Positions 2,837 to 64,000 of a DNA stretch of 64,000 nucleotides are shown here, one piece after another. Below the pieces are notes generated by a model. That model was not told the origin of the DNA. It searched no databases and saw only the letters and a program-made list of their open reading frames with translations. How positions within the stretch are numbered: the stretch's first letter is position 1; the number at the start of each line of letters is the position of its first letter. Source of the DNA: Bacillus sp. AFS055030. Its GTDB lineage: Bacteria > Bacillota > Bacilli > Bacillales > Bacillaceae_G. Location of the stretch: NCBI RefSeq assembly GCF_002574545.1, contig NZ_NUGT01000004.1, positions 1-64,000 on the forward strand, read 5' to 3'. The position numbers and the translations under genes were made by a program.

Positions 2837-3118
2837 TTACCAAGTAGTCGCATAACCTTTTCCATATTTTGAGATAATTTTTTTAGCGGAAATAACAAGT
2901 GCAGTTGAAATAACTCCATATCCAACAATAATCGCAACAAGACTAATAATCGTTGTAATTGTACTAAATGTATCAATAATAGTTATAACTTTGCCAGCTA
3001 CTGTAGTCGAGACACCTAAGTTAGCTGCAAGATATGGCAAAGAAATAGTTAAAGTTGAAAGCAATACAGCCATTCCTAATACATATAAAATTGTTTTTTT
3101 ATTCATCACTAAAGACAT
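2837..3118 (-). CDS. Circular bacteriocin precursor (amylocyclicin/circularin-type)
   Basis: 93 residues. Residues 1-29 form a hydrophobic leader and residues 30-93 match the 64-residue core layout of amylocyclicin as I recall it: LAANLGVSTT at the start, a TIID...TIISLV helix, an IISKYGKGYA stretch, and a final Trp. Head-to-tail joining of Leu30 to Trp93 would give the mature ring, a compact bundle of helices that permeabilises membranes of related Gram-positives. The first ATG is preceded by GGGGG seven bases upstream and is preferred over the internal Met5. The membrane-protein and ATPase genes downstream supply the expected maturation, export and immunity functions. Its promoter region holds the GTAAACGTTTAC palindrome. 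Confidence 0.9.
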   Translation of the reverse strand: MSLVMNKKTILYVLGMAVLLSTLTISLPYLAANLGVSTTVAGKVITIIDTFSTITTIISLVAIIVGYGVISTALVISAKKIISKYGKGYATTW

Positions 3119-3244: not shown

Positions 3245-3367
3245 CTAAATAGTTAGTTTAAATTTACTTTTCTTATTAAAGAACGATATTTGACCGGTCA
3301 ATAAGACTAGTAGAAAGATTGAAACAATAATTAATAAAATAATAAATAATATTTTTCTACTATTCAT
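3245..3367 (-). CDS. Possible 40-residue single-span membrane peptide
   Basis: An ATG frame of 40 codons between the palindromic operator and the bacteriocin precursor. Residues 4-24 form one strongly hydrophobic segment and the C-terminus is lysine-rich (FFNKKSKFK). No good ribosome site is seen before the ATG, which lowers confidence. It occupies the same place relative to the palindrome as the 69-residue membrane protein gene at the second locus (38.4 kb). Function unknown. Confidence 0.35.
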   Translation of the reverse strand: MNSRKILFIILLIIVSIFLLVLLTGQISFFNKKSKFKLTI

Positions 3368-3392: not shown

Positions 3393-3427
3393 TTTTTTAG
3401 TAAACGTTTACGAAATTATCTTAACAT
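3393..3427 (-). promoter_or_regulatory. Palindromic operator GTAAACGTTTAC before the bacteriocin genes
   Basis: A perfect 12-base palindrome at 3400-3411 lies in a 35-base block. The same block recurs with one base changed at 38253-38287. On the minus strand it reads TGTTAAGATAATTTCG, then the palindrome half-sites, then a run of A. A TTTACT hexamer in the palindrome with a TTTAAA hexamer 17 bases later could be the promoter, so a bound protein would overlap the -35 region. Confidence 0.6.
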
Positions 3428-3485
3428 CTAACTTAACATAATAAAAGGAAAATTTTACTAAATTCAATTGACTAAATTATGATAA

Positions 3486-3720
3486 TTTTCACACTCATCG
3501 ATCCTACTTCTACTATTACAATTTCTTTGATCAGAAGCTTATAAAAACTCTTCGAAACTATGATTCCATTAACGATATTATTGATACTAAAAACTATATG
3601 AATATGGTATATACTTTAGTAAAAACATGTGAAGATTTACTAAAAGTTTCAAAAAATTTCCACTAAATTCATTCACAAGATCACTATAATTAAAGAAATT
3701 AATTACATAAAGAGGTGATC
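3486..3720 (+). promoter_or_regulatory. Repeated leader/promoter element, copy A
   Basis: Copy A of a long element found again at 4245-4460 and, on the other strand, at 37981-38150. Shared parts are AACTATGATTCCATTA, a GTGAAGATTTACTAAAA box resembling the palindromic operator, a TATAAT -10 in ATCACTATAATTAAAGA, and a terminal AGAGGTGAT. The last looks like a ribosome site but only TTG-ATA-GAT-TAG follows it. It sits about 120 bases before the gene at 3841. Confidence 0.65.
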
Positions 3721-3840
3721 AACTTGATAGATTAGGTTTTCTAGTATAGGAATAACACAGAAATTTTTAAAATTTAGGATACAGTATAAGTATTATTTAA
3801 TTAATAATTATGTTTATAAATCAAACTAAAAAAGGAGTAA

Positions 3841-4113
3841 TTGAAGATTATGGATGAGAAAGATTTTCCTTTCTACAGAATACTTTCTATTTCATCAGGG
3901 ATGCAGTCTTTACTTTTTATGTTAAATACACGTTTTATGATAGAAAGTATCATAAATATAGTTGTAACATGTTTATTTTTATTAAGTTACTTACTAATAT
4001 TTATTAAAATGCCTCGAACTAAACGAAATTATCAATATATTATTTTTAGTTTTTTAATATTTATCTGTATATCAATATTTGTTAATAAATACAATAGCGG
4101 AGGTCAGCATTGA
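3841..4113 (+). CDS. Small membrane protein downstream of leader copy A
   Basis: About 90 residues with two hydrophobic segments (roughly residues 40-56 and 65-81) separated by a basic loop. The TTG at 3841 lies only three bases after AAAAAAGGAG and the ATG at 3850 lies 12 bases after it, so the true start is either. Not recognised. It is divergent from the bacteriocin operon and shares its intergenic control region, so a role in bacteriocin protection or regulation is possible but unproven. Its stop codon sits just 3' of the left arm of the terminator. Confidence 0.6.
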   Translation: MKIMDEKDFPFYRILSISSGMQSLLFMLNTRFMIESIINIVVTCLFLLSYLLIFIKMPRTKRNYQYIIFSFLIFICISIFVNKYNSGGQH

Positions 4114-4139
4114 AGAATTTGATGCTGACCTCCGCTATT
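4093..4139 (+). terminator. Strong terminator overlapping the stop codon
   Basis: A perfect 18-base inverted repeat (4093-4110 and 4122-4139) with an 11-base loop. The left arm forms the last six codons of the preceding gene. It contains GCGGAGGTC, itself like a ribosome site. Few T residues follow, so it may also act as a 3' stabiliser. Confidence 0.7.
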
Positions 4140-4244
4140 TTAATATGTTTCAGTCTAGTAAGATTTTATTAATTTTGTACGCGCTGAATCGCTATATATA
4201 TTGTGTCTAAGAACTCTTGTTTTTCCAGAGTAATAGAATTATGA

Positions 4245-4460
4245 ACGCTTTCACAATTATTGATTCTACACTACAATTACTTCGATCAAAAGCCTATAAA
4301 AACGCATAGAAACTATGATTCCATTAGAATGTTCACTATGGTACTTTCTTTTGTAAAAACATGTAATGATTTATTAAAATTTTCACAAAAATTTCACTGA
4401 ATATATTCTCCAGATAACTACAATTAAAGACATAAATAAATTATTTTCATAAGAGGTGAT
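4245..4460 (+). promoter_or_regulatory. Repeated leader/promoter element, copy B
   Basis: Second copy of the element, in the same orientation as copy A. It matches copy A along most of its length, including GATCAAAAGCCTATAAAAAC, GAAACTATGATTCCATTA, GTAATGATTTATTAAAA and AGAGGTGAT. The terminal ribosome-like site precedes a seven-codon frame (MVDNLVN). It is about 155 bases before the start of the secreted protein at 4616. Confidence 0.65.
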
Positions 4461-4615
4461 AGTTATGGTAGATAATCTAGTAAATTAGTTTTCTAATAAA
4501 TTTTAAAAAATAAATAGGAAGGAAATTTACTATTCGGTTTTTAAACTTTACTCATTACTTAATTAAAAAATAAAATTATAAATCTTGTAATTTTTTTAAA
4601 AAATCGGAGGTCAAT

Positions 4616-5509
4616 ATGGTTATCAAACGAAGTAACAAACACAGTTTTTTTTTAGTATTAAGCACACTTTTTTTTGTTGGAGGACTTTCAAATGGCTTTG
4701 CTAATGCTGAAGAAATTCAAAATACACCCACCGAAGAAATACATATTTTATCTGAAGAACTAGTAAGTCCAGTTCAATTTAATACTTTAGAGAGAATAAA
4801 ATTACAAAATTTAGGTTTTTCAACTGAGGAAATTAATAGTATGACAGTTGAAGAATATAATGATTTCAAAGATTTATACGGATCAAATTTAGCTTTAGAT
4901 GAAAATTACTATAAACTAACACAAGATATCCCTTACTCTGATCCTGCTGTTGAAGAAATCTCAAAAGCTCAAGCAATTAATGAAATTAATACAACAAAGT
5001 TAGGTCGAGGTACTAATTCTAAAACAACCGGTTATTTAAAAATGACTACATCCTCTTCAAAGTTAAGTAATGGAAATACTCTAATAAAAAACTCGTTTAC
5101 ATGGCTAAAAACCCCAAATATGAAATTAACTGATGTAGTCGCTATTACCCATTCTACAAGTTCTGTAAAAATACCAAATACCGATAAGTTTAGTTATAAA
5201 TACACAGATGGTAAAGGGATACATTCAGTTGGAGCAAAAAGTACAACAAAAAATAACAAAGGGATCGCAAAAAAATTCAATTTAAAAGATTTGGGGATTA
5301 ATATGGCCCCATATAATCACAACGGTTATCTTTCAGTTGAAGTAACTAAAGGTAATAAATATGATATAACTGCTAATGCTTTTGGTCACTACACACATAT
5401 TACTGCTGGTGTAATATATTCTCTAGACATTAAAACGGGAAGTATAGGAGTCGGGGTAGCTGGTATAAAAAATACTATGGAAAATACTATGATAAAATTT
5501 AATTATTAG
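4616..5509 (+). CDS. Secreted protein of unknown function downstream of leader copy B
   Basis: 297 residues. A basic N-terminus and a hydrophobic stretch end at a likely signal peptidase site (ANA, about residue 31). The mature part begins with an acidic region, then a motif LGFSTEEINSMTVEEY, then a beta-rich C-terminal half from about residue 135 (TTGYLKMTTSSSKL...). No catalytic motif and no Cys are apparent. The ATG is preceded by ATCGGAGG at good spacing. A 56-residue membrane protein follows 19 bases downstream, an arrangement reminiscent of a secreted effector with a dedicated membrane partner, but no activity can be read from the sequence. Confidence 0.85.
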   Translation: MVIKRSNKHSFFLVLSTLFFVGGLSNGFANAEEIQNTPTEEIHILSEELVSPVQFNTLERIKLQNLGFSTEEINSMTVEEYNDFKDLYGSNLALDENYYKLTQDIPYSDPAVEEISKAQAINEINTTKLGRGTNSKTTGYLKMTTSSSKLSNGNTLIKNSFTWLKTPNMKLTDVVAITHSTSSVKIPNTDKFSYKYTDGKGIHSVGAKSTTKNNKGIAKKFNLKDLGINMAPYNHNGYLSVEVTKGNKYDITANAFGHYTHITAGVIYSLDIKTGSIGVGVAGIKNTMENTMIKFNY

Positions 5510-5528
5510 TATTATAGAGGTTAATTAA

Positions 5529-5699
5529 ATGAAAAATATTCTTATTTTTGCAATCGCTTCACCTATTGTATTTTATTTTTTATCAGTATTATTCATTTTA
5601 CTTAATTTTGATGAATTAAACTCGTTCTATATTACTCTATCGATCTATTTAGGCGTAATAATAGGACTTTTATACAAAATTTATAAAAACGTGAAATAA
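5529..5699 (+). CDS. 56-residue two-span membrane protein
   Basis: An ATG frame of 56 codons preceded by AGAGG. Two hydrophobic segments (about residues 3-24 and 33-49) are separated by a short acidic loop (NFDELNS), and the C-terminus is basic (YKIYKNVK). It follows the secreted protein gene closely and is followed by a terminator, so the two form one transcript. Function unknown; an immunity or anchoring role for the secreted partner is a guess from arrangement. Confidence 0.65.
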   Translation: MKNILIFAIASPIVFYFLSVLFILLNFDELNSFYITLSIYLGVIIGLLYKIYKNVK

Positions 5700-6569: not shown

Positions 6570-6818
6570 ATGTTAAAAGAAGAAACTAAAAAATCAAATG
6601 AAAGAAATAGAAAAAGTTCTAGTAGAGTTAGCGCTTATACAAATAGTTCAACGGGTACTGTAACAGTAACAATTGGTCATCAAACTATTGTTGCAAAAGA
6701 TAATTCACTAGAAAGTATTATTGGCGAAGTTCGAAAACAACGTCATAATCGATTGGCGCAAAGTAGAATTCAAACAGCAAGATTTATGGAAAAATTAAAT
6801 AGGATTGGCTGCAAATAG
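6570..6818 (+). CDS. Small basic protein of unknown function
   Basis: 82 residues, preceded by AAAGAGGTGA at good spacing and followed by a terminator. The N-terminal third is charged and Ser-rich (KKSNERNRKSSSRV), the middle is a Thr/Val-rich beta-like stretch (TGTVTVTIGHQTIVAKD), and the C-terminus is a basic helix (EVRKQRHNRLAQSRIQTARF). No family recognised. About 270 bases upstream (6295-6569) show no other gene. Confidence 0.65.
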   Translation: MLKEETKKSNERNRKSSSRVSAYTNSSTGTVTVTIGHQTIVAKDNSLESIIGEVRKQRHNRLAQSRIQTARFMEKLNRIGCK

Positions 6819-14897: not shown

Positions 14898-14907
14898 ACT
14901 AACTCTA

Positions 14908-15003
14908 CTTATCTTTGGGATCTCCCTTGGAATTGGCACGGTATTACAAAGAACCCGCTGCCGAGGTTTCATAGGGCCAGTCCCTCCACCTCTCTGGATA
15001 AGA
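14908..15003 (-). promoter_or_regulatory. SAM-I (S-box) riboswitch nearest oppB
   Basis: On the minus strand: P1 CTTATC...GATAAG, then the S-box core AGAGAGGTGGAGGGACTGGC, then CCTATGAAACC, CGGCAGC, and CCGTGCCAATTCC near the end. These are the conserved core elements of the SAM-I aptamer. SAM binding should favour the terminator at 14862-14897 and turn the opp operon down when methionine/SAM is plentiful. Confidence 0.93.
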
Positions 15004-15032
15004 AATTTTATTTTGTTTTAAAGATGAAAAAA

Positions 15033-15058
15033 ATCCCCTTCTAAGATAGAAGAGGACT
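15033..15058 (-). terminator. Intrinsic terminator of the promoter-proximal SAM riboswitch
   Basis: Minus-strand hairpin TCCTCTTCT...AGAAGGGGA (one wobble pair) followed by seven T, between the two aptamers. Confidence 0.8.
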
Positions 15059-15076
15059 TGTTTTTCATCTACTCTT

Positions 15077-15181
15077 CTTATCTTTTCAGGGCTATACCCT
15101 GATGGAATTAGCACAGTGTTCATATAGAACCCGCTGCTGAGGTATCATAGGGCCAAGTCCCTCCACCTCTCTGGATAAGAA
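15077..15181 (-). promoter_or_regulatory. Second, upstream SAM-I (S-box) riboswitch in tandem
   Basis: Same core as its neighbour: P1 CTTATC/GATAAG, AGAGAGGTGGAGGGACTTGG, CCCTATGATACC, CAGCAGCGGG and CTGTGCTAATTCC. It has its own terminator, so the transcript passes two complete SAM switches in series before oppB. Upstream 15182-15680 shows no gene; it is AT-rich and must hold the promoters of opp and of the DUF2975 gene. Confidence 0.93.
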
Positions 15182-36874: not shown

Positions 36875-37164
36875 TCATTTAACCCTTATTTTAGCATCTC
36901 CTTGAATATAAGAAGGATAAAATGACAACTTAAGCTTTAATGGATTAACGTAATCTTTAGTAGAAATTGTTATTCCTACTATTTGCTTACCACCATCATG
37001 ATATTCAGTTGATTCTGCACTAGTTTCAACTTCTTTGCCATTAGCATCAAAAATTGATTCAACTAATGAGTTAATGACAATTTATGCTCATGCATAATTG
37101 ACAGAAATGCTTGCTCATCTCCTTTGATAGCCTTTTTCACTATACTATGATCCTGAATGTCAAT
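36875..37164 (-). pseudogene. Fused relic of an ECF sigma factor and its anti-sigma factor
   Basis: Read on the minus strand, the first part is the N-terminus of an ECF sigma factor (DHSIVKKAIKGDEQAFLSIM, then HEHK) behind a GGAGGG site. After about 28 codons the frame is lost. In another frame there is then the tail of a DUF4179/RsiX-like anti-sigma factor (VINSLVESIFDANGKEVETS ... YVNPLKLKLSFYPSYIQGDA), with its stop at 36875. In many Bacillaceae the sigma gene directly precedes its anti-sigma gene, so one internal deletion explains both remnants. Confidence 0.65.
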
Positions 37165-37243
37165 CCCTCCATCTCGATGTTCTATATATTAGACTTCTGA
37201 GAGCCAAAAAAGTTTTAATAATTTCTAATTTTCCTCATAAAAA

Positions 37244-37344: not shown

Positions 37345-37815
37345 TTATATCGTTTCTTGCCAATAGGATTTTATCAATTTTATCCTACTAGAATCTGAAT
37401 AAACATAAACATTATGGCGAATTACTCTGGTTTTTCCAGTATATCTTACTTGCATAATATCTTTTGTATAAAGAATAGGTCTGGATTTTGAAAGAAATGA
37501 TATAGGAGTAGCAGCAACACCTGCGAATCCTGCTGGAGCAAAATATACTCCTAGTGATATGGATGCGACTGAAGCAATTTGTATAGAAAAATCCACTCCT
37601 GATTGGTTTTGTATTTTTCCATAGGCAGTTCCAACATAACTATATTGTGTTCCACCTGTTTCAATAGCAACACTTCGACTAGATTTAGGAGATATTTCTT
37701 GTTCAATAGGTGTAATTTGAATGGTGTCACTTGTAGCAGTGGACTCTGCAAATGATGCACTTGCTGAGCTAAGTGTAATAGCAGTTGCTAAAGTTGAAAT
37801 TAAAAGTTTTTTCAT
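37345..37815 (-). CDS. Small secreted protein downstream of leader copy C
   Basis: 156 residues. Signal peptide ends at ASFAES (about residue 24). The mature part has an acidic lead, a hydrophobic, glycine-rich core (SIQIASVASISLGVYFAPAG and on to about residue 110) and a basic C-terminus (TRVIRHNVYVYSDSSRIKLI). A hydrophobic core in a small secreted protein is reminiscent of pore-forming or bacteriocin-like peptides, but no family is recognised. The ATG at 37815 has AGGAG eight bases upstream; the GTG at 37824 is less likely. Expression is from the long leader shared with the loci at 3.8 and 4.6 kb. Confidence 0.75.
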   Translation of the reverse strand: MKKLLISTLATAITLSSASASFAESTATSDTIQITPIEQEISPKSSRSVAIETGGTQYSYVGTAYGKIQNQSGVDFSIQIASVASISLGVYFAPAGFAGVAATPISFLSKSRPILYTKDIMQVRYTGKTRVIRHNVYVYSDSSRIKLIKSYWQETI

Positions 37816-37980
37816 AAGTAACACTCCTTATCTTTTACGGCTTGTTTTTCTTGTTTTAGAAAAAAATTGTTAATTAAATTGCAACTATCCATCTCTTGAC
37901 CATAAAGAAGATTAACAATCACTTGAATCCCCTTCTAAATTTTTTTGATTGATTCAAAAATAACTTTTTATCTACAAAAA

Positions 37981-38150
37981 CTATCACCTCTTTACATCTA
38001 TATTAATATCTTAATTATAGTAATCTGAAGAATGAATTCAGTGGAATTTTTGTGAATGTTTTAGTAAAACTTTACAAATTTTTACGTATAAAAGAACTTA
38101 GTTGTTTTCAAAAAATATTAGAAGAAGACTTGTTAATAGAATCATAGTTT
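37981..38150 (-). promoter_or_regulatory. Repeated leader/promoter element, copy C
   Basis: Third copy, on the minus strand: AACTATGATTCTATTAACAA, GTAAAGTTTTACTAAAA, TTCACAAAAATTCCACTGAA, then ATTACTATAATTAAGA (-10) and AGAGGTGAT about 168 bases before the ATG. Only TTG-TAG follows the ribosome-like site, so no peptide is conserved there. Confidence 0.65.
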
Positions 38151-38252
38151 GTTACTTTTTCATAATTCCATATAGCGTTAAATCCTAATGTCCAAAAAAT
38201 GAAAAAAAGTTCACAATAAAGACAATGAATTTTAGTGTATCTAACTTTTTAA

Positions 38253-38287
38253 ATGTTAAGATAGTTTCGTAAACGTTTACTAAAAAA
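38253..38287 (+). promoter_or_regulatory. Palindromic operator GTAAACGTTTAC, second site
   Basis: Palindrome at 38269-38280 in a 35-base block nearly the same as that at 3393-3427 (inverted). It lies 165 bases before the small membrane protein gene at 38445, with TTATAA about 18 bases after a TTTACT in the palindrome. Confidence 0.6.
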
Positions 38288-38444: not shown

Positions 38445-38654
38445 ATGAAATTAGCAAGAAATATCTTAATTATATTTTCCTACATAATGTTTACGTTATT
38501 GATCATATTTGGACCCGAATTTCGTGAGTATAAATTGTATGTTTTTTTGTTACAGTTATTATTTTTTTGTACTGGTCCATTTTTATTAATATTTTTAGAC
38601 TGGAAGAAAAAAAGAAATAAAAAAGGTTCAAAAATCTTTGATAATTCGGAGTGA
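38445..38654 (+). CDS. Small membrane protein next to the leader-copy-C locus
   Basis: 69 residues with two membrane segments (about 5-22 and 30-51) and a basic tail (DWKKKRNKKGSKIF). AACAGGAGG is well placed before the ATG. It is divergent from the secreted protein at 37.3 kb, and they share a control region, the same layout as the bacteriocin locus. Role unknown; immunity or sensing are candidates. Confidence 0.75.
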   Translation: MKLARNILIIFSYIMFTLLIIFGPEFREYKLYVFLLQLLFFCTGPFLLIFLDWKKKRNKKGSKIFDNSE

Positions 38655-39058: not shown

Positions 39059-40474
39059 CTATCTATTTCTATTTTTTCGATTACGTAAGAATGCCGGTAT
39101 ATATGAAGTTGAATCTTCCTTCTCATTGAAGCGGCCATATTCTTGTTGCTCATTGTAACGTCCGTAATCTTGTTGTTCTGTGAAACGATTATGCTCTTTT
39201 TGTTCTGTGAAACGATTATGATCTTGTCGTTCTTGGTAACGGTTATAATCCTGCTGTTCATTATATCGTCCATAATCATTTTGTTCATTGTATCGAGTGA
39301 AATCTTGTTGCTCATTATAGCGATTATGCTCTTTTTGTTCATTGTAACGGCCATAATTTGGCTGTTCCGTGTAACGACCGGTTTCTTGATGATCATTATA
39401 GCGAGCGTAGTCTTGCTGTTGGTCTACGCGATATCTCTGTTCTTGTTGGAAACGTTGCTCTCTATTATATAAGCTAGGTGCTTCTTCTATTGGTCTAGAA
39501 GGAGTTCTTACCATTTTCTCCTCTTTATCCGCAAAACCTGTAGCAATTACCGTTACAATAATTTCATCTTTTAAGTTTTCGTCGATTACTGAACCGAAAA
39601 TCATATTTAATTCTTCATGCGATGCAGAAGCAACGATATCTGCAGCTTCTTGTACTTCAAACAGACTTAAGTTACGTCCGCCTGTAATATTCATAATGAC
39701 ACCATGCGCTCCATTAATAGAAGTTTCAAGTAACGGAGAATTTAATGCCTTCTGAGCAGCGATCGTAGCGCGGTCTTTACCTTTTGCAATACCGATTCCC
39801 ATAAGGGCTGTCCCTTTATGAGACATGACTGTTTTAACATCAGCAAAGTCTAGATTGATTAATCCTGGAACTGCGATCAAGTCGGAAATCCCTTGAACCC
39901 CTTGTCGAAGTACATTATCCGCTTCACGGAACGCTTCAAGCATCGGTGTTTTTTTGTCAACTAGCTCTAATAAACGATCGTTTGGAATGATAATTAATGT
40001 GTCAACTGCTTCTCTAAGTTCCTTAATTCCACCTTCAGCATTTGTTGCACGCTTTTTCCCTTCAAATTTAAAGGGGCGAGTTACAACTCCAATCGTTAAA
40101 GCACCAAGCTTACGAGCAATTTTCGCAACTTCAGGTGCTGCCCCAGTTCCTGTTCCGCCGCCCATTCCAGCTGTAACGAATACCATGTCCGCTCCTTGTA
40201 GTACTTCCTCAATTTGCGATTTACTTTCTTCTACAGCTCTTTTTCCAATTTCAGGATTTGCACCTGCTCCTAAACCACGCGTCAACGTTGCACCAATTTG
40301 CATTGTTATTTCAGCTTTTGATTGTTTTAGCGCTTGCGCATCGGTATTAAAAGCAATGAATTCAACGCCCTCTACTCCATCTTCAATCATTCGATTAACG
40401 GCGTTATTTCCTCCACCACCAACTCCAATAACTTTTATTCTTGCAAACTGTTCTATATTTTCAAATTCAAACAT
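39059..40474 (-). CDS. ftsZ: Solitary FtsZ with a long repeat linker
   Basis: 471 residues. The GTPase body (1-320) is complete: [16 protein letters not shown], tubulin signature GMGGGTGTG near residue 105, and T7 loop NLDFADV near 206. Residues 353-451 are eleven tandem 9-residue units, consensus QQDYxRYNE (for example [18 protein letters not shown]). The tail [17 protein letters not shown] keeps the conserved peptide that binds FtsA and other partners. Bacillus FtsZ is about 380-390 residues with a short unordered linker. No ftsA or other division genes are nearby, so this is probably a second copy outside the dcw cluster, or a relocated gene. GAGGAGG is placed before the ATG. Confidence 0.92.
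39122..39418 (-). repeat. Eleven tandem 27-base repeats in ftsZ
   Basis: The DNA for the FtsZ linker is a coding repeat of 27 bases times eleven. Units differ in a few positions; the most conserved residues are the Arg followed by Tyr or Phe, and the Glu. Copy number could change by slippage without breaking the frame. Confidence 0.9.
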
Positions 40475-40956
40475 GATTATTCCTCCTCGTCATACCGATT
40501 ACATAATTTCACGTTTTTCAAAGAACCATTATTTTCATTCTAAGATTTATCTTTTTATGTACGTATTAGTAGATTAGAATTATCCAATTCACTTAAAGAC
40601 ATAGAATCGTCCTAATTCCCCTAACACTACTATACAAGAAAACTACTTATTATCTTTTTGATAATTTTCCCTTAATATACCTTTAACTAAAACATTTATT
40701 TTAACATCTTAATGTAATATCTCTATCAACTTCGTAACAAACGTTAGAAAAGTATGTACAAATATATAATTCTTTCCTTTTTGGTTGAATCCTTTAAGAA
40801 TCTATATCGTTTCAAAGAAATCATTACCCAAAATACGATAAAATGTGATACCGTTCACAATTTTTCCACTATATTATCATCCCTACGTATTTTCTACTGG
40901 TAATATATTAATATATTAGGATTTTCTTAATAAATAAATTCTGAATTGGAGAGATC

Positions 40957-41316
40957 ATGAAAATATTACTTAAAGGTTTAATTTTTAAAATTTGTTTCTT
41001 CATTAGCTTTTCTCTTTTCATCTTTTATTCGCAAAATTTATGTATTCATAATAAAGATACGTCCTTTAAAGTAATAAAAGATATGAAAAGAATTGAAAGT
41101 GATACTGATCTAAAAAACTCTACATTTTTCACTAATCAGTTAAAATATCAATCCAATGAAAAAGAAGAATTTGCCAAAGTAAGTATTTTCCTTTTTGGAA
41201 ACTTTGATCGTCTTGAGGAATTAATGAAAGATTATTCCAATTTAGTCGTAATGGGTACTGTAAAATCCACCGAACCGTATATCATAATGAAAAATGGCGG
41301 AATTGAAAAACAATAA
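40957..41316 (+). CDS. Small membrane-anchored or secreted protein
   Basis: 119 residues: an N-terminal hydrophobic stretch (LIFKICFFISFSLFIFYSQ) that may be an anchor or signal peptide, then a charged soluble part. GGAGAG lies before the ATG. Not recognised. Upstream 40475-40956 holds no other gene; it must contain the divergent promoters of ftsZ and of this gene. Confidence 0.6.
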   Translation: MKILLKGLIFKICFFISFSLFIFYSQNLCIHNKDTSFKVIKDMKRIESDTDLKNSTFFTNQLKYQSNEKEEFAKVSIFLFGNFDRLEELMKDYSNLVVMGTVKSTEPYIIMKNGGIEKQ

Positions 41317-61237: not shown

Positions 61238-64000
61238 TTATAATCCTAACTCACTCTTTACAATCTCTAAAGTCTTCATTTTATATTTACTTTTTGGTTT
61301 TGGCGCATTTTCAACAGAAGGATTTTGCATTAAATAGTTCTTTTCTACGAATGCAAGGTCTTTTACATCAACGTTTCCATCTATATTAATATCTGCACTT
61401 CGTTTGTTTGTTCCCCAATATGTTTGAATAAATAATGCATCCAATACGTCAATTACATCGTCACCGTTTACATCTCCACCAAGTAGTAAAGGTAGATCGA
61501 TTTTTTTAAATTGACCGATCAATTCACCTTTTTCATTTAGCATACCAATTTTGAAATTATAATGACTTCTAAAATGTCCTGGAAGTTTTATAGTCATTTG
61601 GAGTGGTTGATCAGTAAGTGCTAAATGTGAAGCTTCAATTTTTCCAAACTGATTAAAGATTTGATTATATCGATTTCCTTTGGCATCTTGTATTAATACA
61701 TCTGCACCAACTTTACTGTAATCCCTTCTACTATCAAACGCCCCACCACTAGTTAATAAACCTTCAGCATATAAAAGAGATTTGATTTTCGAATAAGTAG
61801 GAACTAAATCAACATATGGTGAATTTGTAATCAGAGAATTCGTTTTACCTGATCTGTTAACATATGAACCAAATGTAAATATACCAGAACAATCTGGTCT
61901 TATTTCAAAATTATAATCTTTTACTTTAAAAGTAGCTTCCACTAAAGGAATATCCCCATTAAGAGTTTGCGTATTACTATCAGCAGTTTCTACAGTTACA
62001 ATATTTGCTGAAGTGTTGGTAAATTTAATTTCTCCTAGTTTACTAGAATCTGGGTGTAATCCAACGTTTTCGATATTTAAGAAATCTGAAGATGCACCTA
62101 TGTCTACAGTACCTTTTTTAAAATCGACAGCGTTCTTTAATACGACTTTCACATTTACTACATCACCCGGTTTTGCAGTCTCTTTATCCACAATTGCAGT
62201 CAAGTATGGTGTACCTTTTTTTACGATTTTAATTGTCTTAGGTGCAACACTACCATTTCCTGCAGGATCAACTACAACTAATTTAACAACCTTTACTCCA
62301 CTTCCAATAGGTACGTCATATTTGAATGTGCCATTTTTATCAACAGGTATTTCTACTGGCTGTTCTCCTTTTGCTAAATCATAGACTTTGTTTGCAGACT
62401 GATCAATCTTCATACCTGCTGCTTTATGCCCTTCAATATCTTGATCAAATACTGAACCGGTAATGGTAACTGATTTTTGACCTTCCTCGTATTCAATGAT
62501 ATCTCCTACTGGTCCATCGATCGTATATTTAGGCTTTCTATTATCAATTACTAAATCACGATATGCTGTGAACTGTTTACCAGTATCAGTTGTCGCAAGG
62601 AGTTTGATCTTGTAAAAACCATCATCTGCCACAACACGGGATGTACTAATACCGTTAGGGGATGCGTTATCAAACGGGTAATACGTACCATTAAAGAGAT
62701 TCAAATTAACTAAATCACCTTCATTTAAACTAAATCCATTCACTGCACCAAGATACCCTATTTCCTGACTCGTCTTTCCATCTTCCAATATGAAATCAAT
62801 ATTTCTAACATTTGATTTCATTTGAACTTGAGCAGTTATTGTCTTAATCGTGTTAGGACTTGTATATCCATCTCTATAGCGGTCTTCTGATAAGCCAAGT
62901 GATGATGTTTCAAAAACGCCTATTCCTTCTTCAACAACGTGTACACCAAAAGGAATTTTATATGTTTCTCTCGGATCATTTTGATTTGTGTAAACGATAT
63001 ACCCTTCATAATTACCTTTTTCAGCTGTTTTTGGTATAAAGATTGAAGCATTCATATTTTTTTGAGAATTAGCAGCTAGTTTAATAGTCGGTAAAATTGA
63101 AATTTTTACTCCGTTTTTATCAACATCTTTAGATCCACGTAAACCTGTTTGATATTTAACTGCTACATCAAATGTTTTTGTTTCATTTCCAGAATTTTTA
63201 AGAACAACTTTACGCTCTTCATTTACATCAGCACTTAGATCGACTGAACCAAAGCTTAATGCACCTGTTTCATCTTTTATTTTCTTTTCTTTCCCATTTT
63301 TTAAAATAGGTGTTTCATTTTGAACTTTCATTTCAATCGATGAATGCACTGCTTTATATATATCTACTCTACCTGCTCCTGATTCAAAAACACTATAATC
63401 CCTACTTAAAGGAGTAGCAGTATTCATTAGGATTGACTTGACATCACTCGGTTTTAAACTTGATTTTGCTTGGAGTAAAAGTGCAGCCATACCTGCAACA
63501 TTTGGCGTTGCCATAGATGTACCCGAAAGTCGTTCATAAGCGTATTCATAATCGTTTGGCTTATTTTTATTAATCATATAAGCTGGCACAGTAGAGAAAA
63601 CACCAACACCTGGAGCAGTAATTTCTGGCTTAATATCGTATGTCACACGAGCTGGTCCACGTGAACTAAAATCCGCTAACTCGTCTGCTTTTGTTTGAAT
63701 TTCTCCAAGTTCATTAAAAGTAAACGTACTTGCTGTATTAACTTTTGATTTCAAAGCTAGGCCTTGCGCATTTGTTAACGTGAATGTAGGAATATATTCT
63801 AATCCTTCACCTAAATAAGACGGTATAAGACCTTCATCTGGATTATTATTGAAAAGTAGCGCTGCTTGTGCACCATTTAATTTTGCATATTTTACTTTAT
63901 CTGCCAAAGTAATATTGTTCCCACGACTTATTAATACAACTTTCCCTTTTACATCTTTATTTTTATAGTCAGTTGATCCGCCATACCCAACATCAATTAT
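61238..64000 (-). CDS. Vpr-like subtilase with cohesin-like and dockerin domains (cut at window edge)
   Basis: 920 codons in the window; the frame is open through the right edge, so the signal peptide, propeptide and the catalytic Asp and His are outside. Seen are: the PA domain (DVKGKVVLISRGNNITLADK, KLNGAQAALLFNNNPDEGLI), then DFSSRGPA and the catalytic Ser in LSGTSMATPNVAG (about 63515). An Fn3-like stretch and a cohesin-like domain follow (AKPGDVVNVKVVLKNAVDFK ... NGDIPLVEATFKVKDYNFEI). A dockerin comes at the end, with two Ca-loop repeats (DVNGDDVIDVLDALFIQTYW and DINIDGNVDVKDLAFVEKNY). It is a large secreted protease. Confidence 0.92.
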   Translation of the reverse strand: MIDVGYGGSTDYKNKDVKGKVVLISRGNNITLADKVKYAKLNGAQAALLFNNNPDEGLIPSYLGEGLEYIPTFTLTNAQGLALKSKVNTASTFTFNELGEIQTKADELADFSSRGPARVTYDIKPEITAPGVGVFSTVPAYMINKNKPNDYEYAYERLSGTSMATPNVAGMAALLLQAKSSLKPSDVKSILMNTATPLSRDYSVFESGAGRVDIYKAVHSSIEMKVQNETPILKNGKEKKIKDETGALSFGSVDLSADVNEERKVVLKNSGNETKTFDVAVKYQTGLRGSKDVDKNGVKISILPTIKLAANSQKNMNASIFIPKTAEKGNYEGYIVYTNQNDPRETYKIPFGVHVVEEGIGVFETSSLGLSEDRYRDGYTSPNTIKTITAQVQMKSNVRNIDFILEDGKTSQEIGYLGAVNGFSLNEGDLVNLNLFNGTYYPFDNASPNGISTSRVVADDGFYKIKLLATTDTGKQFTAYRDLVIDNRKPKYTIDGPVGDIIEYEEGQKSVTITGSVFDQDIEGHKAAGMKIDQSANKVYDLAKGEQPVEIPVDKNGTFKYDVPIGSGVKVVKLVVVDPAGNGSVAPKTIKIVKKGTPYLTAIVDKETAKPGDVVNVKVVLKNAVDFKKGTVDIGASSDFLNIENVGLHPDSSKLGEIKFTNTSANIVTVETADSNTQTLNGDIPLVEATFKVKDYNFEIRPDCSGIFTFGSYVNRSGKTNSLITNSPYVDLVPTYSKIKSLLYAEGLLTSGGAFDSRRDYSKVGADVLIQDAKGNRYNQIFNQFGKIEASHLALTDQPLQMTIKLPGHFRSHYNFKIGMLNEKGELIGQFKKIDLPLLLGGDVNGDDVIDVLDALFIQTYWGTNKRSADINIDGNVDVKDLAFVEKNYLMQNPSVENAPKPKSKYKMKTLEIVKSELGL

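What the first reader, a model, noticed from the sequence alone, without database searches (positions are those of the whole stretch)
3393..5699. Three copies of a long leader element in front of secreted or membrane protein genes
Elements at 3486-3720, 4245-4460 and (inverted) 37981-38150 share blocks over about 170-230 bases, including a TATAAT box, an operator-like GTAAAGnTTTACTAAAA, and AGAGGTGAT. The genes they serve are unrelated in sequence: a 90-residue membrane protein, a 297-residue secreted protein, and a 156-residue secreted protein. The control region was therefore copied, not the genes. This looks like a small regulon for secreted, possibly antagonistic, products beside a bacteriocin operon.
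Basis: seen in the sequence. Interest (0 to 1): 0.8.

Follow-up and report, generated by a model that had tools for sequence, protein, structure and literature searches.

The report
Reused two-way promoter with swapped genes
A soil bacterium carries three copies of one two-way genetic switch, probably tripped by low oxygen, and among its relatives the switch is kept while the small secreted and membrane protein genes attached to it keep changing.

Summary
The window has three copies of one element, the only full copies in its genome (e2 against e1 E 1.3e-26, against e3 3.9e-21). The genus is Gottfriedia (inferred). A model of the core matches 9 of 13 genus genomes; a 176-base query matched 0 of 6 genomes of sister genera.

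It is a two-promoter control region, not an RNA leader; 12 of 15 full copies lie between divergent genes. That box occurs at 21 genome sites against 2 in a reversed control; 7 of 10 regions examined precede redox genes. In the window PL points at a gene stub, then a circular-bacteriocin operon.

Payloads turn over: 15 full PR copies front four payload types. 'Small regulon' is plausible; 'control region copied, not the genes' is half right; 'antagonistic' rests on the bacteriocin alone.

The parts
3396..3735 (.). element e1: two-promoter control region between the bacteriocin side (left) and the 90-residue gene (right)
   Evidence: homology to e2/e3 and copies in relatives
3396..3414 (-). cre-like palindrome (box A) of PL in e1
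   Evidence: column identity 0.97 over 21 copies
3452..3457 (-). TAAAAT, proposed -10 of PL in e1
3478..3493 (-). redox (Fnr-type) box of e1, 9 of 10 arm bases
3685..3690 (+). TATAAT, proposed -10 of PR in e1
3709..3719 (+). ribosome site AAAGAGGTGAT of PR in e1
3245..3367 (-). 40-residue stub of the ~280-residue payload gene between PL and the bacteriocin gene
2837..3118 (-). circular bacteriocin precursor, 93 aa; operon continues to about 252
   Evidence: PF09221 61 bits (cut-off 23.6), TIGR03651 52.1 (30.7)
3841..4113 (+). 90-residue membrane protein behind PR of e1
   Evidence: no family above cut-off
4094..4138 (+). terminator-like hairpin between the e1 and e2 units
4146..4238 (-). C-terminal remnant of a 175/159-family secreted protein, replacing the left half of e2
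   Evidence: 88% over 33 residues to L061 protein
4240..4488 (.). element e2: redox-like box 4240-4255(-) without a PL -10, box B 4363-4379, -10 TACAAT 4419-4424, ribosome site 4451-4460
4616..5509 (+). 297-residue secreted protein behind PR of e2
   Evidence: no family above cut-off
5529..5699 (+). 56-residue membrane protein; relatives precede the LCP gene elsewhere
37966..38284 (.). element e3 (PR leftward, PL rightward): -10 of PR 38014-38019(-), ribosome site 37983-37993(-), box B 38059-38075(-), redox-like box 38200-38215(+; 8 of 10), box A 38266-38284(+)
37345..37824 (-). 159-residue secreted protein behind PR of e3
38445..38654 (+). 69-residue membrane protein behind PL of e3

Best explanation
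Each full element is a control region with two promoters pointing apart. PL is probably an oxygen-responsive promoter: an Fnr-type dimer on TGTGA-N6-TCACA, centred near -41.5, recruits RNA polymerase to a TAAAAT-like -10 box without a -35 box, and a cre-like palindrome about 26 bases past the start lets CcpA (or another LacI-type repressor) block it when preferred sugars are present. PR fires the other way from TATAAT/TACAAT, also without a convincing -35 box, so it too probably needs an activator, which is unknown. Ribosome sites then lead into whichever gene is attached. Whole divergent modules were duplicated; deletions and recombination between copies have since changed the attached genes, which include a circular bacteriocin operon, LCP-family enzymes and small secreted or membrane proteins. 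Shown: homology, conservation, motif positions, payload turnover, and a genome-wide set of the redox box before redox genes. Inferred: promoter activity, binding by Fnr and CcpA, induction at low oxygen, exchange by recombination, and a competitive role.
For: Copies in 9 of 13 genus genomes with conserved PR invariants over 15 copies and PL over 21 copies. Redox box perfect in 11 of 23 rows with varying spacer; TAAAAT at bases 21-26 after it in 10 of 23, TAAATT in 3, CAAAAT in 1. Arms better conserved (0.95, 0.89) than spacer (0.76) and flank (0.66); box A 0.97. The box at 21 genome sites against 2 control; 12 of the 21 sites, in 10 regions, were read, and 7 regions precede redox genes by my reading. 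A Crp/Fnr protein with a C-terminal cysteine cluster lies beside narK. cre-like 14-mers 56 against 25 control; 5 of 15 loci read precede PTS parts or Fba. Turnover and remnants.
Against: The window's own redox boxes are imperfect: e1 and e2 9 of 10, e3 8 of 10; e2 has lost the PL -10 and box A, and e3 has TGTATC at the -10 place. A -10 of 5 or 6 matches at this spacing occurs at few of the genome's other redox sites (hcp, doxX) and not at adhE or cydA. The genome has 14 Crp-type HTH matches, so the binder is uncertain. Box A misses 2 of 14 cre positions; with up to 3 mismatches its genome count (23) is below the reversed control (50). The 14 columns beside box C are also well conserved (0.85), and the 90-residue coding sequence is as conserved as PR (92.1 against 93.5%). 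The window's copies are only 72-75% identical, poor substrates for recombination today. The bacteriocin gene may have its own promoter; not tested. No expression data.
Confidence: 0.55

Rival explanations
1. The redox box is a Rex operator: PL is repressed at high NAD+/NADH rather than activated by Fnr. The outcome (on at low oxygen) is similar.
For: Most arms read TGTGAA/TTCACA, as in the Staphylococcus Rex consensus TTGTGAAW4TTCACAA (PMC2883068, abstract and passages). The genome's adhE sites fit Rex well.
Against: The central four bases of PL copies often hold C or G, not W4; the box is followed by a -10 at activator spacing and PL has no clear -35 box.
Confidence: 0.2
2. Decaying duplications without a live regulon: the blocks look alike by common descent and occasional gene conversion.
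For: Truncated genes and collapsed operons around the copies; the 90-residue coding sequence is about as conserved as PR; window boxes are imperfect.
Against: Arms are better conserved than spacers; middle (83.8%) and leader (86.0%) are less conserved than the PR core (93.5%); copies with different payloads keep the same invariant positions.
Confidence: 0.15
3. A dedicated bacteriocin regulon with a peptide-sensing regulator acting on GTAAA-N2-TTTAC boxes, as in blp-type loci.
For: A bacteriocin operon lies beside e1; the palindrome recurs in PR copies.
Against: No regulator, kinase or pheromone gene was noticed beside the copies when reading the fetched loci (not searched by profile). PL motifs match general redox and carbon regulators.
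Confidence: 0.1

Closest known systems
Subtilosin A (sbo-alb) operon of Bacillus subtilis, induced by oxygen limitation through ResD
   Same: A bacteriocin operon tied to low oxygen (PMC6323116, passages)
   Different: Different bacteriocin and activator; not a duplicated two-way element with changing payloads
blp bacteriocin immunity region of Streptococcus pneumoniae
   Same: One shared conserved promoter element in front of several bacteriocin and immunity genes (PMC5295010, passages)
   Different: Driven by a pheromone two-component system with direct repeats; here redox- and cre-type boxes and divergent promoters
Fnr regulon of Bacillus species
   Same: TGTGA-N6-TCACA boxes before anaerobic genes; an Fnr-like protein beside narK
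   Different: Here the box precedes secreted/membrane payloads; binding untested
Circularin A/uberolysin family circular bacteriocins
   Same: Window gene 2837-3118 belongs there
   Different: It is a neighbour behind PL, not the element itself

Membership tests
Fnr-activated (class II) promoter | TGTGA-N6-TCACA box | tested here: met
   Perfect in 11 of 23 PL rows; window copies 9, 9 and 8 of 10
Fnr-activated (class II) promoter | Box centred near -41.5 with a -10 box at matching distance (geometry recalled) | tested here: inconclusive
   TAAAAT, TAAATT or CAAAAT at the expected place in 14 of 23 rows, including e1 but not e2 or e3; start site not mapped
Fnr-activated (class II) promoter | Fnr binding and loss of activity in an fnr deletion | not testable with these tools
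   Needs bench work
CcpA/cre control | Match to the cre consensus (consensus recalled) | tested here: inconclusive
   12 of 14 positions; genome cre-like sites 56 against 25 control
Rex operator | TTGTGAA-W4-TTCACAA | tested here: inconclusive
   Inner arms fit in most rows, W4 spacer often does not
RNA leader or riboswitch | Match to a described RNA family at the element | tested here: not met
   Two Rfam matches in the window, both SAM riboswitches at 14906-15181
blp-like bacteriocin regulon | Cognate pheromone two-component regulator | not tested
   None noticed by eye in fetched loci; no profile search made
Circularin A/uberolysin circular bacteriocin (neighbour gene) | Profile match above cut-off | tested here: met
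   61 bits against 23.6 and 52.1 against 30.7

The most novel reading that the evidence does not exclude
A promoter-anchored cassette system: a conserved two-way, low-oxygen and sugar-gated switch that also serves as the homology for swapping its attached genes, so a genus keeps the control and keeps changing the secreted, possibly competitive, payloads on both sides.
Probability: 0.28. Interest if true: 0.7.

Novelty: new variant of a known kind. Interest (0 to 1): 0.5.

Why it matters
If right, the promoter rather than the gene is the stable unit, which gives a simple way to find unknown secreted effectors: list what follows each copy. It would tie a bacteriocin and its neighbours in a soil bacillus to oxygen and sugar supply, which one growth experiment can test.

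Tried and rejected
RNA leader or riboswitch: no Rfam match at the element. Low-complexity or dispersed repeat: no other full copy in the genome. ECF sigma control of PR (a sigma/anti-sigma pair follows the 159-residue gene in L057): no two-part ECF promoter seen by eye; not pursued. ResD control of PR: ATTCACAAA in many PR copies is the reverse complement of a ResD motif that I recall; no paper in the library held that motif with ResD, so it stays a lead. Conserved leader peptide after the ribosome site: start or frame broken in several copies, so judged vestigial. Genome-wide use of box A: with up to 2 mismatches 44 hits (both strands) against 36 reversed controls in 13 genomes; the 12 exact hits are all at the cassette or ftsZ loci. 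Box B as a cre site: too many mismatches by eye. Product function: no family above cut-off for the 90-, 297-, 159-, 69- or 56-residue proteins or for seven secreted, lipoprotein or membrane payloads of relatives; LCP, sigma factor and anti-sigma domains were recognised. Print: Gottfriedia with bacteriocin (2 papers), Gottfriedia with genome (12 of 14 listed), and two searches on shared or divergent promoters and bacteriocins showed no title on this element; I saw those as listings only, apart from passages of PMC5295010.

Full report
Observation. A whole-genome search with e2 finds e2, e1 (69%, E 1.3e-26) and e3 (78% over about 129 bases, E 3.9e-21); the next of 43 matches is 30 bases at E 2.6e-4. 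The block AAACTATGATTCYATTA is exact at these three places only in 4.39 Mb.

Where it occurs. A core pattern hit six stretches of named genomes: Gottfriedia luciferensis CH01, G. acidiceleris 1-17 and DSM 18954, and Bacillus sp. AFS001701, AFS088145 and FJAT-25509. A 176-base query matched 8 of 13 genus genomes at E 1e-4; at E 0.001 three more had hits of 32-43 bases, and none of 6 genomes of three sister genera matched. A model built from 15 copies gave 18 matches in 9 of 13 genus genomes: the 15 it was built from and three weaker ones (G012 E 1.8e-8, G001:C44 7e-5, G001:C12 0.003).

What it is. In 12 of the 15 full copies the element now lies between divergent genes; in the other three (e2, the second copy of G001, the second copy of G009) the left-hand gene is gone or a remnant. 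Aligning the other side revealed a second conserved promoter region, PL, in 21 copies. Reading in its own direction it has TGTGA-N6-TCACA, a TAAAAT-like hexamer, the palindrome GTAAACGTTTAC and a ribosome site. Of 23 rows scored, 11 have a perfect box, 5 have 9 of 10 arm bases and 7 have 8 or fewer (some of these low ones may be chance best matches). At bases 21-26 after the box, 10 rows have TAAAAT, 3 TAAATT, 1 CAAAAT and 9 something else. Column identity is 0.95 and 0.89 in the arms, 0.76 in the spacer, 0.66 in the flank, 0.97 in box A, 0.88 in the PL -10 region and 0.85 beside it. The rows are related, so these are not independent trials. By arithmetic, a box centred at -41.5 puts box A near +26.

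Redox link. TGTGA-N6-TCACA occurs at 21 places in the genome against 2 for the reversed pattern. Loci came for 13 sites; one (L187) did not line up in my script. The other 12 sites lie in 10 regions. By my reading of the protein sequences (no profile search), seven precede cytochrome bd oxidase, hybrid-cluster protein, NarK (two), a RIC-type repair protein, lactate permease and AdhE; the others precede DoxX, an Mrp-type ATPase and an unrecognised 89-residue protein. Beside one narK lies a Crp/Fnr-family protein ending in a cysteine cluster; it meets no NCBIfam equivalog cut-off. The genome has 14 Crp-type HTH matches. A good -10 at the Fnr spacing was seen at hcp (6 of 6) and doxX (5 of 6), a weak one at the narK of L181 (4 of 6), none at adhE or cydA. 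Rex is the main rival: its Staphylococcus consensus is TTGTGAAW4TTCACAA (PMC2883068, abstract and passages), but the central four bases of PL copies often hold C or G.

Carbon link. Box A fits a recalled cre consensus at 12 of 14 positions. cre-like 14-mers (up to 1 mismatch) number 56 against 25 control, only one of them perfect. Of 15 loci read, 5 precede PTS parts or fructose-bisphosphate aldolase by eye. This is weaker than the redox link; box A with up to 3 mismatches is not enriched over its reversed control (23 against 50).

PR. It has TATAAT (TACAAT in e2 and its FJAT-25509 relative), no convincing -35, a GTAAA-N2-TTTAC palindrome near -62, TTCAC-like repeats about 10 bases apart, and a ribosome site beginning 18-26 bases after the -10 box in the window copies. 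Its regulator is unknown. A terminator-like hairpin after the 90-residue gene separates the e1 and e2 units.

Payload turnover. The 15 full PR copies precede a 90-residue membrane protein (6), an LCP-family protein with or without a 56/64-residue membrane protein (5), the 297- plus 56-residue proteins (2), or the 159-residue protein (2). PL copies precede a ~280-residue protein (whole or truncated), secreted proteins of 273, 176, 175 and 168 residues, the 69-residue membrane protein, or the bacteriocin operon. The bacteriocin gene lies behind PL in this genome, G010 and G012. In a draw of 397 genomes of the order, the 297-residue family was found in 14 and the 159-residue family in 4; in each case 3 of the 12 genus genomes shown in the answer had a match, one of the 297-type with a stop inside. 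G009, not shown there, has a 159-family remnant.

How the genes change. Left of e2 lies a C-terminal remnant of the 175/159 family. Before the bacteriocin gene lies a 40-residue stub of the ~280-residue gene. The sigma/anti-sigma operon that follows the 159-residue gene in L057 is reduced to pieces at 36878-37167. The FJAT-25509 element matches e1 at 98% over 40 columns in its middle, where e2 lacks most of the segment; further right it matches e2 at 82-97% and e1 at 48-77% where both could be scored. This is what recombination between tandem copies would leave, but a deletion in e2 could explain part of it. PR cores in one genome are 98% identical in G010, 95% in G003, 91% in G009, 86% in G001, but 72-75% in the window.

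Comparison. Low-oxygen control of a bacteriocin is known for subtilosin A through ResD (PMC6323116, passages). A shared conserved promoter before bacteriocin genes is known from the blp locus (PMC5295010, passages). The combination of a two-way, redox- and cre-type switch with changing payloads on both sides is what appears new; my paper searches (listings) showed no title on it.

Noticed in passing
window 36878-37167 (minus): An ECF sigma factor and DUF4179 anti-sigma operon, whole in relatives (L057, L129, L131, L136, L064), is reduced here to a 32-residue and a 64-residue piece.
   Followed up: partly
window 40844-40859: A perfect TGTGA-N6-TCACA box about 100 bases before a 119-residue ORF (40957-41316) that resembles part of a longer protein in L064 (44% over 93 residues); no NCBIfam match.
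   Followed up: partly
window 14906-15181 (minus): Two SAM riboswitches in tandem.
   Followed up: no
window 39059-40474 (minus): An FtsZ-like ORF with a long tail of RYNEQQ-type repeats.
   Followed up: no
window 6570-6818 (plus): An 82-residue ORF with relatives near the element loci of L056, L061 and L062 (67-78%).
   Followed up: no
window 61238-64000 (minus): Product 38% identical over about 950 residues to a 1366-residue protein next to the L063 element; a similar ORF lies near the L058 elements.
   Followed up: no
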